From the IMG/VR virus record IMGVR_UViG_3300030105_002900, positions 4,422 through 25,394 of that record: 20,973 nt of DNA; one strand, 5' to 3'. Below the pieces are notes generated by a model, which searched no databases, had not been told where the DNA came from, and was given only the letters and a program-made list of their open reading frames with translations. Positions 7,259 through 20,646 of the stretch are shown piece after piece. The translations under genes and the position numbers were made by a program. The stretch comes from a virus. Position 1 is the first letter of the stretch. Each line of letters opens with the position of its first letter.

Positions 7259-7566
7259 CGGTTATCTCCTGAGCCTTTGATGACATCCCGCTCTTTACGG
7301 TCTGTAAGCTTCTCTATGTTCATCTGAGCAGCTTGAGAGAGGCTAAGGCCCTGAGTGTCTAAGCATGCTGTGAGTTGCCAGAGGACGTCTCCAGCCTCTT
7401 TAAGGACATCGTCAGTAGATACGCTGTCATAGTCACCACGGTAGAGCTTAGCAAATAGTCTAAGGAACTCTCCCACTTCTTCGGGTAAGCCTAGAAATGG
7501 GTAGACCTCATGCTTGAAATCAGCAAACTTCATAGCATCTATTTGGTACTGTTCTAAATCATTCAT
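7255..7566 (-). CDS. mazG: MazG-like nucleoside triphosphate pyrophosphohydrolase
   Basis: All-alpha NTP pyrophosphohydrolase of the MazG family, 103 aa, about the length of a single-domain enzyme. The metal-binding EExxE helix is GLPEEVGEFLRL (E29, E30, E33) and the second ligand helix is KEAGDVLWQL (E57, D60). Phage MazG proteins hydrolyse (d)NTPs and have been proposed to adjust the host nucleotide or (p)ppGpp pool during infection; the true substrate cannot be read from sequence. The start overlaps the primase-helicase stop (ATGA), and its own stop overlaps the 42-aa Cys-rich gene, so it is tightly embedded in the replication operon. Confidence 0.9.
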   Translation of the reverse strand: MNDLEQYQIDAMKFADFKHEVYPFLGLPEEVGEFLRLFAKLYRGDYDSVSTDDVLKEAGDVLWQLTACLDTQGLSLSQAAQMNIEKLTDRKERDVIKGSGDNR

Positions 7567-9287
7567 TTCTTAATTTGCCTATAGTTAGCCGGCTCTATAG
7601 TAGAGAGCATTCGTCCAGTTGTCTCATCGAACTTAAGGAAGCCAGCGCTACCTGTACGTCCAGTGAAGCGACACTTGAGGACTGTGAGTTCTGTAGTATT
7701 AGCACAGTGTATATCAGGGTGTTGTTGATTGCGGGACAGACCTATAACGTCCCAGGAGAGTTGCTTGATCGAGGCTGAGCCCCGCAAGTCATCTAAGGTA
7801 GGAGTGGCTCCCTCTTCGAACGATCGTCTAGAGGAGTCACTTTTCTTGAGATGCACCACCAAGAAGATGATTACACCAGTCTCTTTCACTAGCTTAGCTA
7901 GCTTAGTCATTATGGTATCTATTCTTTCTCTTTCCCCACCATCGCTTGCAAACTCAGAAACAATGATAGAAAGATGATCGAGGAAGATGATATTATGTCC
8001 GGTAGAGGTAAAGTAACGGAGTTTACTGAAAAGAGTATCGTCATCCATACCACCAAAGAAATCGTAGAGGGTAAAACGACCAGAACTAAATATCTCATCA
8101 AAGGCCTGCTTCTCAACTTCTGGAGTAACTTTAACATCTGGGAGGGTTATCCTTTTATTAAGGTGTAAAGACAGCATGCCACCAATAGTATCCCCTACGT
8201 CCTCCTCTAGTGCTATGTCAGCAATCTTGAAGTCGGTTGTTTGATAGTAGTGGTACTTGAGCTCTCGAAGGAACTGTGTCTTACCACAGCCTGAGCCAGA
8301 GGTGACTGTAATGATGGAGCCAGGCCTGCAACCGTATGTTTTCTCGGTTAATCCTGACATGGTGGAGGGGTATGGGTGACAGACAGAGTTGTTAGAGTCC
8401 TTATAGCGACTCCAGCAATCTCCTGCATCAAGGATGCCATCTGGTTGATACTTCTTAGCATTAGTGAGGACAGCCCATTTAAGGTCAGTGCCCTTACCTT
8501 TGACAAGCATCTCGTTAGGATCTTTCTCAGTGAACTTAGCAACGAAGACTTTACCAGCTAAGACTTTACAGACTTCTTGTGTTGCTTGCTTGCCAGGAGA
8601 ATCCTGATCAAAACAAAGAACAATTTCATCGTAGCCGTCGATGAGATCCATATTTTCTGAGATGCTTCTAACCGCACTGCTGGACCCATGTGGGAGTGAT
8701 ACCACAGATGGTTCCCATGATATATTAGACTGTTCTTTAAGGACTTGGTATAGGGATAAGGCATCTAATTCGCCTTCAGTTATGAATAGTTTCTTTCCGG
8801 TGGGGTTTACAACGTTAGCTCCGAATAGTTCGACGTTCTTACAGTCGCCGATGGAGCGGAATGATTTGTCTGAACAGACACGTTGTTTAAATCCTGTTAT
8901 GTCGCGATTCTTGGACATAGGATAGAGATGGAAGATAGGGGTTGACCCGTCTCTAGAGTCAAGCCCCACTCTTACACCATACCTCTCACAAGAAGCATGA
9001 GAGATACCCCTGCCGCTAAGTTCACGAACAGGGTGGTGTAAACATTCGTCAGTACTACTGATACTCAGTACATGAGACGGACCTCGAACAGTAGGTGTTT
9101 TCTTATGCTCAGTATTACTTCCCTCAACAGTGTTACTGCCCCGTTGATACGGGTCGTGGAAGTACTTACCACAAGAAAAACAGTGTGCATTATCGCCAGA
9201 ACCATTCTCCCCTTCATAGATCTTATAGCCGCTTCTGCTGCCACAGTCGGGGTTCGGACACACATTAGATTCTAGTACCTTTCCCAC
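7563..9287 (-). CDS. Primase-helicase (T7 gp4 type)
   Basis: Bifunctional replication enzyme. The N-terminal zinc domain has Cys10, Cys15, Cys36 and Cys39 (CPNPDC ... CFSC), the primer-recognition site. The TOPRIM primase core shows LFITEGELDALS (168-178, catalytic Glu) and CFDQDSPGKQA (225-235, acidic metal ligands). The RecA-like helicase domain has Walker A VTSGSGCGKTQFL (328-340), Walker B IIFLDHLSIIVS (433-444) and later VVHLKK, DDLRGSASIKQ and CRFTGRTG motifs of the DnaB superfamily. At 574 aa it is close to T7 gp4 (566). The start is a GTG with GAGGAGAACC upstream. An internal start for a primase-less form, as in T7, is not obvious. Confidence 0.97.
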   Translation of the reverse strand: MGKVLESNVCPNPDCGSRSGYKIYEGENGSGDNAHCFSCGKYFHDPYQRGSNTVEGSNTEHKKTPTVRGPSHVLSISSTDECLHHPVRELSGRGISHASCERYGVRVGLDSRDGSTPIFHLYPMSKNRDITGFKQRVCSDKSFRSIGDCKNVELFGANVVNPTGKKLFITEGELDALSLYQVLKEQSNISWEPSVVSLPHGSSSAVRSISENMDLIDGYDEIVLCFDQDSPGKQATQEVCKVLAGKVFVAKFTEKDPNEMLVKGKGTDLKWAVLTNAKKYQPDGILDAGDCWSRYKDSNNSVCHPYPSTMSGLTEKTYGCRPGSIITVTSGSGCGKTQFLRELKYHYYQTTDFKIADIALEEDVGDTIGGMLSLHLNKRITLPDVKVTPEVEKQAFDEIFSSGRFTLYDFFGGMDDDTLFSKLRYFTSTGHNIIFLDHLSIIVSEFASDGGERERIDTIMTKLAKLVKETGVIIFLVVHLKKSDSSRRSFEEGATPTLDDLRGSASIKQLSWDVIGLSRNQQHPDIHCANTTELTVLKCRFTGRTGSAGFLKFDETTGRMLSTIEPANYRQIKK

Positions 9288-11348: not shown

Positions 11349-11748
11349 GGATGAAGACCCTAGACTTCGTGTGGTAGTACATTTATAACCTGCCATGTCC
11401 TCATGCAGGGCCTTTCAGAGCTATGCACAGTTCGTTTGTGACAGATGTGATTACAAGCAACGGTTTTAAAGTACAGGTACTACGCAAGTAATCAGGTAGT
11501 CCTCAACCTATTGGTGTTAGGTTGGTTAGTAGTGAGTATAACCTCTACAGGTACTAGGGAAACGCTCAGCCCTAGTTCTGGCAATCTCTATTTTAAGTAC
11601 CACAGGGCTTAAAGATGCTACTTAGATTGGAATCCATGTAGGGCAATCATCTTAGGATGTGACACTGCCCAGCTTACATACTAGCTGGTGCATTTCTTAC
11701 CTACCATATCTCTGGCAGCTACCGATAGCTACCCAGCATTAGCGGGGT

Positions 11749-11765
11749 CAAGGAGTTGAACCTTG
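11749..11765 (-). other. tRNA T-arm-like hairpin directly after a stop codon
   Basis: On the minus strand CAAGG-TTCAACT-CCTTG has five perfect pairs and a seven-base loop matching the TTCRANY T-loop consensus. It is followed by ACCCCGCT, which could be a 3' acceptor strand. The 5' partner (GCGGGGT) and the D and anticodon arms are missing; the coding sequence of the upstream gene ends one base before the hairpin. Confidence 0.45.
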
Positions 11766-12191
11766 CTACTCAGAGGTGGAATGGCTGGCGTCGAACTTCA
11801 ACTCTTGCAGTTGAACCTCAGCAGAGGCTTTAAGAGGCGTCACCTCACCAGTAGAGGACGAGTCAGTAGACGGCTGCTCATCAATGATGGTAGTCTCTGA
11901 TCCAGCCTTGGGACTGACCTCAGAGACGTCATCTATTCTCTCTCGAGAGACCGCCGGCTCTCGTTCTTTCTCAGCGTGGCAGGCTGTTGCTCGAGCAACT
12001 ACCTCACTCTTCTGGCCTACTGGGAAAGCCTTATTGATCGCTTTCTTACCCATCAACACAGTGGCATTGTGAAGATGGTCAAACAAGAAAGCTACCCCTA
12101 GGAGGAGCATCCCGCTCCCATACAACAGGTAGCTGGGGGCATTGCCCGCCATCTCTTCGAGAGCTACCTTTACACTATTACTTTTACTCAT
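11766..12191 (-). CDS. Putative single-pass membrane protein with long acidic/Ser-rich tail, 141 aa
   Basis: Residues ~19-38 (PSYLLYGSGMLLLGVAFLF) form one hydrophobic helix, followed by a basic stretch (MGKKAINKAFPVGQKSE). The C-terminal half is low-complexity and rich in Ser, Glu and Thr (SPKAGSETTIIDEQPSTDSS), probably disordered. AAAGGAGTGACG precedes the ATG. The architecture, with a short N-terminal anchor and long flexible tail, suggests an inner-membrane protein with a cytoplasmic tail, but no family is recognised. Its stop abuts a T-arm-like hairpin and the structured gap. The codons for TTII contain one copy of the recurrent ACTACCATCAT word. Confidence 0.72.
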   Translation of the reverse strand: MSKSNSVKVALEEMAGNAPSYLLYGSGMLLLGVAFLFDHLHNATVLMGKKAINKAFPVGQKSEVVARATACHAEKEREPAVSRERIDDVSEVSPKAGSETTIIDEQPSTDSSSTGEVTPLKASAEVQLQELKFDASHSTSE

Positions 12192-16742: not shown

Positions 16743-16854
16743 AGCTCTGTCCTCATTCTGTTAAGGTAAAATGTGTGACAGGTTCCTTTATTACGACTGG
16801 ATGCCTGACTAATAGTCGATGCGTATACCATTTCCGCCACTTCCGTCTAGGAAG

Positions 16855-16871
16855 ACGGGATTCGAACCCGC
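16855..16871 (-). other. tRNA T-arm-like hairpin (GGTTCGAATCC)
   Basis: GCGGG-TTCGAAT-CCCGT on the minus strand matches the T-stem/T-loop consensus exactly, with one G-U closing pair. It is followed by CTTCCTAG, to which an upstream CTAGG at tRNA-like distance (71 bases overall) could pair partially. The 39 intervening bases do not form D and anticodon arms, so this looks like a degenerate or reduced tRNA. Confidence 0.45.
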
Positions 16872-16916
16872 AGATATATCTTGTTGCTTTAATCTCTTGA
16901 GACCCCTAAACACCTA

Positions 16917-16933
16917 GCAGGATTTGAACCTAC
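16917..16933 (-). other. tRNA T-arm-like hairpin (GGTTCAAATCC)
   Basis: GTAGG-TTCAAAT-CCTGC has five pairs (one G-U) and a consensus seven-base T-loop. Upstream ATACCGA could pair with TAGGTGT at six of seven positions as an acceptor stem, giving a shortened body of 34 bases instead of about 41. CGCAA/TTGCG is a five-base stem in that body, but its loop is 11 bases rather than seven. Confidence 0.45.
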
Positions 16934-17003
16934 CGCCGCAACTAACGTGCCTTTGCGATAGCGTACCTCGGTATTCTGTCATAGTCAGGCAGTGGCCATC
17001 GTC

Positions 17004-17020
17004 ACTGGAATCGAACCAGT
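17004..17020 (-). other. tRNA T-arm-like hairpin followed by GCCA
   Basis: ACTGG-TTCGATT-CCAGT has five perfect pairs and a consensus T-loop, followed by GACGATG and GCCA, so it looks like the 3' end of a tRNA with an encoded CCA. The matching 5' acceptor strand (CATCGTC) is absent from the 200 bases upstream. A phage attachment core copied from a tRNA 3' end was considered, but no integrase is present. Confidence 0.45.
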
Positions 17021-17275
17021 ATCGTTGTTTGTGTCTCCATTTGTTGTTAGTAGGATCAGTAGAAGTAAGAGACTAGCTTAGCTTACATAACACATGTAGT
17101 TAGATTTAGCATTATGATTTAGATCACTAGGTATTTGATGAATTACCCTACCTAATTGATGCTCAGAATGCCCCTCAGAGGCCCTAGGAAGCTCTCTGGC
17201 CAACGTTAGCGTCAGAGGTGGCTAAGACTTTACAAAGCTACGTTTATCGCGTTCACGGTGCTTATAAACCGGTGC

Positions 17276-20172: not shown

Positions 20173-20646
20173 TTAACGATCCTTAGGTAAGTGTGTAGGG
20201 AATTCGTCATAACCACGATACAGTGGGTTATAACGATACTTATTAGAACGTGCCTGATTCCGCCTGATGCTTAAGCAGTTGTAATCATCCGAACCATACA
20301 GCCACGTATCCTCACCGATCTCAGTAATGCCTCGAATGATGGTAGTACCACCTACCTTTGCATCCTCTATGAGAATACCAAGATCATGTACAGCAGCATG
20401 GTTATACAACATAGCGCGTTCTGTGACACGCCCCCTGCTATAGCATTTAGCTTCTTCATAGATCCAGCAAGTGTTAACCTGTGATAAGTTCCATTCAGAT
20501 TGGACCCAACCACCTAAATCACCCTCCTTAACACCTTCACAGATGTCACGTAATGCCTTGATACGGTAGAGGATAGTACCGCACGGCAATTGGGTTATAA
20601 TTCTAGTTAACTCATACTTATTATGAATATGTTTTTCTTTTACCAT
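20173..20646 (-). CDS. Beta-helix-like (hexapeptide-type) phage protein, 157 aa
   Basis: After an N-terminal YRIKALRDI and GDLGGWVQSEWNLSQ segment, the middle contains short near-periodic units (WIYEEAKCYSRGRVTERAML, then YNHAAVHDLGILIEDAKVGG), each with small hydrophobic residues at regular steps, the pattern of a left-handed beta-helix. Many phages carry a small protein of this type, with the LxRIxALRDF-GDLGGWI start, of unknown role. It is the first gene downstream of the right-hand leader. AAAGGAGATGCC precedes the ATG. The codons for GGTTII carry one copy of the recurrent 13-base word. Confidence 0.72.
   Translation of the reverse strand: MVKEKHIHNKYELTRIITQLPCGTILYRIKALRDICEGVKEGDLGGWVQSEWNLSQVNTCWIYEEAKCYSRGRVTERAMLYNHAAVHDLGILIEDAKVGGTTIIRGITEIGEDTWLYGSDDYNCLSIRRNQARSNKYRYNPLYRGYDEFPTHLPKDR

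What the first reader, a model, noticed from the sequence alone, without database searches (positions are those of the whole stretch)
16743..17275. Cluster of three tRNA T-arm-like hairpins without complete tRNAs
Three exact T-stem/T-loop signatures occur within 166 bases, all on the transcribed strand, one followed by GCCA. I could not place D, anticodon and acceptor arms for any. They may be degenerate phage tRNAs, reduced tRNA-like RNAs, or decoys for tRNA-modifying or tRNA-cutting defence enzymes. Two of them lie within a perfect 10-bp inverted repeat, which suggests that a larger RNA is being maintained.
Basis: partly seen in the sequence, partly recalled or inferred. Interest (0 to 1): 0.66.

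Follow-up and report, generated by a model that had tools for sequence, protein, structure and literature searches.

The report
Phage tRNA-mimic RNAs resembling Y RNAs
A small marine-type phage carries at least one RNA that copies the elbow of a transfer RNA in rearranged order with its amino-acid end sealed off, as in bacterial Y RNAs, but apparently without the Ro60 protein that Y RNAs normally serve; it is probably a tRNA look-alike rather than a broken tRNA.

Summary
The three T-arms are real, all on the minus strand, and far beyond chance; no tRNA finder calls a tRNA. This is the topology of YrlA, the bacterial Y RNA tRNA mimic. A covariance model built from 11 other sequences, window excluded, scores it 63 bits (E 6e-19). 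The same model independently finds Y RNA arrays beside Ro60 genes in phages and bacteria. A second module of the same kind lies at 11718-11765. Relatives of this phage (Zobellviridae phage GX1 and others) carry YrlA-like RNAs in intergenic regions. GX1, deposited as complete, has no detectable Ro60 gene, and the Ro60-associated motif of phage Y RNAs is absent here. The other two T-arms (T1, T2) stay unexplained, and the 10-bp inverted repeat is not significant (13% by chance). Best reading: orphan YrlA-like tRNA mimics acting on proteins that grip the tRNA elbow (PNPase, tRNA-modifying enzymes or tRNA-cutting nucleases). Architecture well supported; function inferred only.

The parts
16855..16871 (-). 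T3: T-arm of module A (GCGGG TTCGAAT CCCGT)
16840..16854 (-). closed acceptor hairpin of module A (CTTCC-TAGAC-GGAAG)
   Evidence: read from sequence; pairing in R1 and RF02553 alignments
16821..16837 (-). Leu-type D-arm of module A (GCG GAAATGGTATA CGC), after linker TG 16838-16839
16794..16818 (-). possible anticodon-like hairpin (CGACT, 15-nt loop, AGTCG) following the D-arm
   Evidence: sequence only; ordinary anticodon-like hairpins follow the D-arm in several bacterial modules; weak
16917..16933 (-). T2: T-arm, partners unresolved
17004..17020 (-). T1: T-arm, followed by GACGATG-G-CCA (16993-17003), partners unresolved
16802..16811 (.). arm of 10-bp inverted repeat (partner 16982-16991); not significant
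16743..17275 (-). non-coding gap that holds the cluster, directly upstream of the 479-aa gene
11718..11765 (-). module B: second permuted module (CAAGGTTCAACTCCTTG, A, CCCCGC-TAAT-GCTGGG with one mismatch, TA, GCT ATCGGT AGC)
   Evidence: descriptor scan; unconstrained fold
11699..11790 (-). module B with predicted basal stem; its 5' strand overlaps the 3' end of the 141-aa ORF (11766-12191)
   Evidence: MFE -31.6, z -2.15, 4 of 200 shuffles as good

Best explanation
T3 and its downstream sequence encode a non-coding RNA module that mimics the tRNA elbow in circularly permuted order: T-arm, acceptor helix closed by a loop so that no 3' end can be charged or given CCA, then D-arm. It works like the tRNA-mimic domain of YrlA Y RNAs. 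The phage has a second such module (B) and appears to be an orphan user, with no Ro60 gene found. Shown by sequence and covariation: the arms, their order, the closed acceptor. Inferred: that the RNA is transcribed and acts by occupying proteins that grip the T/D elbow without needing an acceptor end. Host PNPase is the first candidate, since the YrlA domain is reported to bind it (PMC8394870); tRNA-modifying enzymes such as TruB and DusA, or tRNA-cutting nucleases, come next.
For: Closed acceptor plus D-arm found next to T3. A model built without the window (A3/R1) gives 63.0 bits, E 5.6e-19. In the training alignment all 5 acceptor pairs show two-sided changes, 96% paired. RF02553 YrlA is the highest-scoring family in the region and pairs T-arm, acceptor and D-arm (19 bits, below the gathering score; Ro60-linked phage and bacterial Y RNAs score only 26-50). 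R1 finds Y RNA arrays next to Ro60 in phages Olaya and CcrColossus and in two bacterial regions not in training. Relatives carry YrlA-like modules: GX1 E 8e-5, L077 E 4e-5. GX1, deposited as a complete genome, has no TROVE match even at E 10. Module B folds as a Y-like RNA unaided.
Against: No transcript data. Folding energy of region A is not unusual, and the free MFE pairs T2 with T3 instead of forming the module. RF02553 score for A is weak (E 0.31) and B has no YrlA match. The training set came from a pattern modelled on window A (T-arm plus TGGCGGAA), and only hits with closed acceptors were kept; R1's score for A is therefore partly circular for the two arms and not wholly unbiased for the acceptor. 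T1 and T2 are unexplained. No Ro60 gene, host or binding partner is known.
Confidence: 0.62

Rival explanations
1. Remains of a tRNA gene cluster: T1, T2 and T3 are 3' halves of decayed tRNAs, and the Leu D-arm is the 5' half of a decayed tRNA-Leu that happens to abut T3.
For: T3 to the D-arm has exactly the spacing of two abutting CCA-less tRNAs (CTTCCTA-G-ACGGAAG). T1 carries GCCA. Other T7-like phages in the helicase family have real Leu and Arg tRNAs, and relative L077 has a near-complete tRNA in a comparable gap.
Against: T-arm and D-arm are intact while their own halves are gone, and the two strands pair perfectly with each other. The same closed acceptor recurs with compensatory changes in unrelated phages and bacteria. 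A second module occurs 5 kb away.
Confidence: 0.2
2. A canonical Y RNA that recruits a host or undetected phage Ro60/Rsr protein to PNPase.
For: Same tRNA-like topology as YrlA. Some phages do carry Rsr (105 records).
Against: No TROVE in the 25-kb own record, GX1 or the other relatives. The motif TTACTTC...GTTCC seen around phage Rsr-linked Y RNAs is absent around A and B. Planctomycete Y RNAs lack that motif too, so this is not conclusive.
Confidence: 0.15
3. A cis-acting element in the phage mRNA, for example a processing or stability structure between genes, with no trans partner.
For: A lies in the leader of the 479-aa gene. B follows the stop codon of the 141-aa gene, and its stem overlaps the coding end. 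The sites are intergenic in several relatives.
Against: A simple hairpin would do; conserving the T-loop and D-loop sequences suggests recognition as tRNA.
Confidence: 0.2

Closest known systems
YrlA bacterial Y RNA (Rfam RF02553; structure 6CU1)
   Same: Order T-arm, closed acceptor hairpin, D-arm; circular permutation of tRNA (PMC11472068).
   Different: No Ro60 gene found, no Ro60-associated flanking motif, no clear long basal stem for A; Leu-type D-arm; extra lone T-arms nearby; score below the family's cut-off.
Rsr-linked Y RNA arrays of phages Olaya and CcrColossus
   Same: Same module, detected by the same model.
   Different: Those sit beside the rsr gene and carry the TTACTTC...GTTCC flanks; these do not.
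Circularly permuted tRNA genes of algae and archaea
   Same: 3' half precedes 5' half (PMC3978253, seen only as a search listing).
   Different: No excisable linker; the acceptor is closed; no anticodon-loop junction to make a working tRNA.

Membership tests
YrlA Y RNA (RF02553) | permuted T-arm / closed acceptor / D-arm | tested here: met
   B:
YrlA Y RNA (RF02553) | score above Rfam gathering cut-off | tested here: not met
   A 19.0 against 69; but Ro60-linked phage and bacterial Y RNAs also fail, 26-50 bits
YrlA Y RNA (RF02553) | basal stem of the two ends, Ro60-binding | tested here: inconclusive
   B has a predicted basal stem, A none clear; Ro60-associated motif absent from both
YrlA Y RNA (RF02553) | encoded near a Ro60/Rsr gene | tested here: not met
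   own record (a fragment); GX1, L076, L077, L022
YrlA Y RNA (RF02553) | binds PNPase; modified by DusA and TruB | not testable with these tools
   literature only (PMC8394870)
tRNA | complete cloverleaf with free acceptor and anticodon | tested here: not met
tmRNA | tRNA-like domain plus tag reading frame | tested here: not met
   ARAGORN -m finds none; Rfam matches only the T-arm

The most novel reading that the evidence does not exclude
Several unrelated phage lineages carry Ro60-independent, uncharged tRNA-mimic RNAs (closed-acceptor, permuted, sometimes fused into other tRNAs as in Burkholderia phage FLC9) that act in trans on host tRNA-binding proteins, for instance as decoys against tRNA-cutting defence or as PNPase ligands.
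Probability: 0.35. Interest if true: 0.8.

Novelty: new variant of a known kind. Interest (0 to 1): 0.62.

Why it matters
Y RNAs have been described as partners of Ro60. Phages with the tRNA-mimic half but no detectable Ro60 would separate the two and point to a job for the mimic alone. YrlA has been proposed as a competitive inhibitor of a tRNA anticodon nuclease (PMC7790460); phages under tRNA-cutting defence are a natural place to test that. Standard annotation misses these RNAs: tRNA finders skip them and Rfam's YrlA cut-off rejects even the Ro60-linked phage ones examined here.

Tried and rejected
Complete tRNAs with default, intron, tmRNA and mitochondrial settings of ARAGORN: none here. 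Regular-order tRNAs for T1 and T2 (upstream acceptor strand plus D-arm): nothing above shuffles. Inverted repeat as the basal stem of a larger RNA: 13% by chance, folding z near 0. DNA homologues in annotated phages: none for the neighbourhood; for the cluster itself only a 53-nt core match in phage FLC9 plus chance-level tRNA matches. The 479-aa neighbour as a divergent Ro60: no Pfam or PHROG match. Split or permuted functional tRNA joined at the anticodon: by eye the candidate anticodon strands do not pair. Promoter and terminator scans gave nothing on the minus strand.

Full report
Observation. On the minus strand the window holds three perfect T-arms at 16855-16871, 16917-16933 and 17004-17020, in the 533-b non-coding gap between a 72-aa ORF and the 479-aa gene. 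A fourth lies at 11749-11765. Markov shuffles give 0.10 such arms per window. ARAGORN reports no tRNA or tmRNA at default, intron or tmRNA settings; its mitochondrial mode makes three calls in the window, none at these arms. Rfam tRNA does not match. The inverted repeat TGCCTGACTA/TAGTCAGGCA is real, but 38 of 300 shuffles hold one as long.

What T3 is. Reading 5' to 3' from T3: GCGGG-TTCGAAT-CCCGT, then CTTCC-TAGAC-GGAAG, then TG, then GCG-GAAATGGTATA-CGC, a standard Leu-type D-arm. The acceptor is therefore closed into a hairpin and the D-arm comes after the T-arm: a tRNA elbow in circularly permuted order. Given a short query, Rfam's highest-scoring family here is RF02553 YrlA (19.0 bits, E 0.31; tmRNA matches only the T-arm), and its alignment pairs exactly these three helices.

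Is the module real? I scanned viral contigs for a T-arm followed by TGGCGGAANNGG within 10-18 b; the acceptor was left free. Of the hits with a perfect T-stem, six of seven had a closed acceptor of 4-5 bp with quite different sequences (L031 and L034 carry the same element). Eleven modules, ten of them from these scans and one from phage FLC9 found by DNA similarity, all without the window, were aligned: the acceptor helix has two-sided changes in 5 of 5 pairs and is 96% paired. The caveat is selection: the pattern came from window A, and only hits with closed acceptors were aligned. A model from this alignment scores window A 63 bits, E 5.6e-19. In 45 further contigs of T7-like phages its best hit was 27.8 bits, and several of its hits there are ordinary tRNA genes.

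Positive controls. Using a bacterial Ro60 protein, 105 phage records with a relative were found. The model finds module arrays directly upstream of that gene in Xanthomonas phage Olaya (3) and Caulobacter phage CcrColossus (4), and near TROVE in Dokdonia (3) and Neorhodopirellula (3); none of these modules was in training. In one search the TROVE gene also lies about 1-3 kb from two training modules, L039 and L063; the training module L036 is 70 kb from its TROVE. RF02553 gives these known Y RNAs 26-50 bits, under the cut-off of 69, so a low score does not exclude membership.

The phage and its relatives. The primase-helicase is 57% identical to Zobellviridae phage GX1 (PQ867844) and about 46-56% to three contigs. 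GX1 has a YrlA-like RNA at L154:11604-11706 (E 8e-5), and L077 one at 7541-7644 (E 4e-5), both in an intergenic stretch upstream of the helicase, as is window module B. Three of these phages share a further tRNA-like hairpin with paired changes (six of 37 pairs; z -3.7 in GX1). The gap upstream of the large gene next to the finding holds T-arms also in L022 and a near-complete tRNA in L077; the large genes of the window and L022 are only weakly alike, so synteny there rests mainly on the neighbouring 218-aa gene. The TROVE model finds nothing in the own record (a fragment; E up to 0.001), nor in GX1 (deposited as complete), L076, L077 or L022 at E up to 10.

Second module. At 11718-11765 the fourth T-arm is followed by CCCCGC-TAAT-GCTGGG (one mismatch), TA, and GCT-ATCGGT-AGC. 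The descriptor that finds it has a background of 12 per 4.5 Mb of shuffled sequence, about 0.06 per window, against two found here. The free fold of 11699-11790 forms T-arm, closed acceptor, a short hairpin in the D-arm region and a basal stem (z -2.15); the basal and D stems compete for two or three bases. Rfam YrlA does not match it.

Function. YrlA is reported to bind PNPase through its tRNA-like domain and Ro60 through its basal stem, and to be modified by DusA and TruB (PMC8394870); its permuted fold is known (PMC11472068); it has been suggested as a competitive inhibitor of an anticodon nuclease (PMC7790460). Around phage Rsr-linked Y RNAs I see TTACTTC (or a close variant) before and GTTCC or TTCCCC after the module; around modules A and B neither is present, though Planctomycete Y RNAs lack it too. 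With no Ro60 found, an action through elbow-binding proteins is the best inference, PNPase first. None of this was tested.

What stays open. T1 and T2 have no partners above chance. Region A as a whole does not fold better than shuffles, and its free fold pairs T2 with T3, so whether one larger RNA exists is unknown. The host is unknown.

Noticed in passing
L155:2990-3420 (Burkholderia phage FLC9, LC667451): tRNA-like genes whose anticodon loop seems replaced by a permuted module with a closed acceptor (CTGCGCG-TTCG-CGCGCAG; CTGCCCC...GGGGCAG), unannotated, in a tRNA cluster; no TROVE in the 321-kb genome.
   Followed up: partly
L159:1646-1713 (CcrColossus): The annotated tRNA-Gln appears to overlap a Y RNA module upstream of the TROVE gene.
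   Followed up: no
L154:11960-12090, L076:8228-8368, L077:8003-8124: Conserved tRNA-like hairpin with extended acceptor stem and the anticodon loop replaced by a hairpin in GX1-like phages.
   Followed up: partly
L154:11551-11601, L076:7774-7824: Module with the loop CTCCAAA, identical to a tRNA-Trp anticodon loop as recalled, with a C-G to T-A change in the stem.
   Followed up: no
L149:5469-5956: Three closed-acceptor modules in a phage contig without tRNAs or TROVE; the third has an 8-bp basal stem CTATCTCG/CGAGATAG.
   Followed up: no
L029:8225-8274 and L030:194-241: Two contigs with long tRNA-like RNAs sharing a GCTAGTAAAAG motif and extra T-arms.
   Followed up: no
L077:11021-11817: Primase-helicase gene split in two; Rfam group I intron matches in the gap, below its cut-off.
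   Followed up: no
window 20173-20646 (-): 157-aa protein with a sub-threshold match to Immunity protein 31.
   Followed up: no
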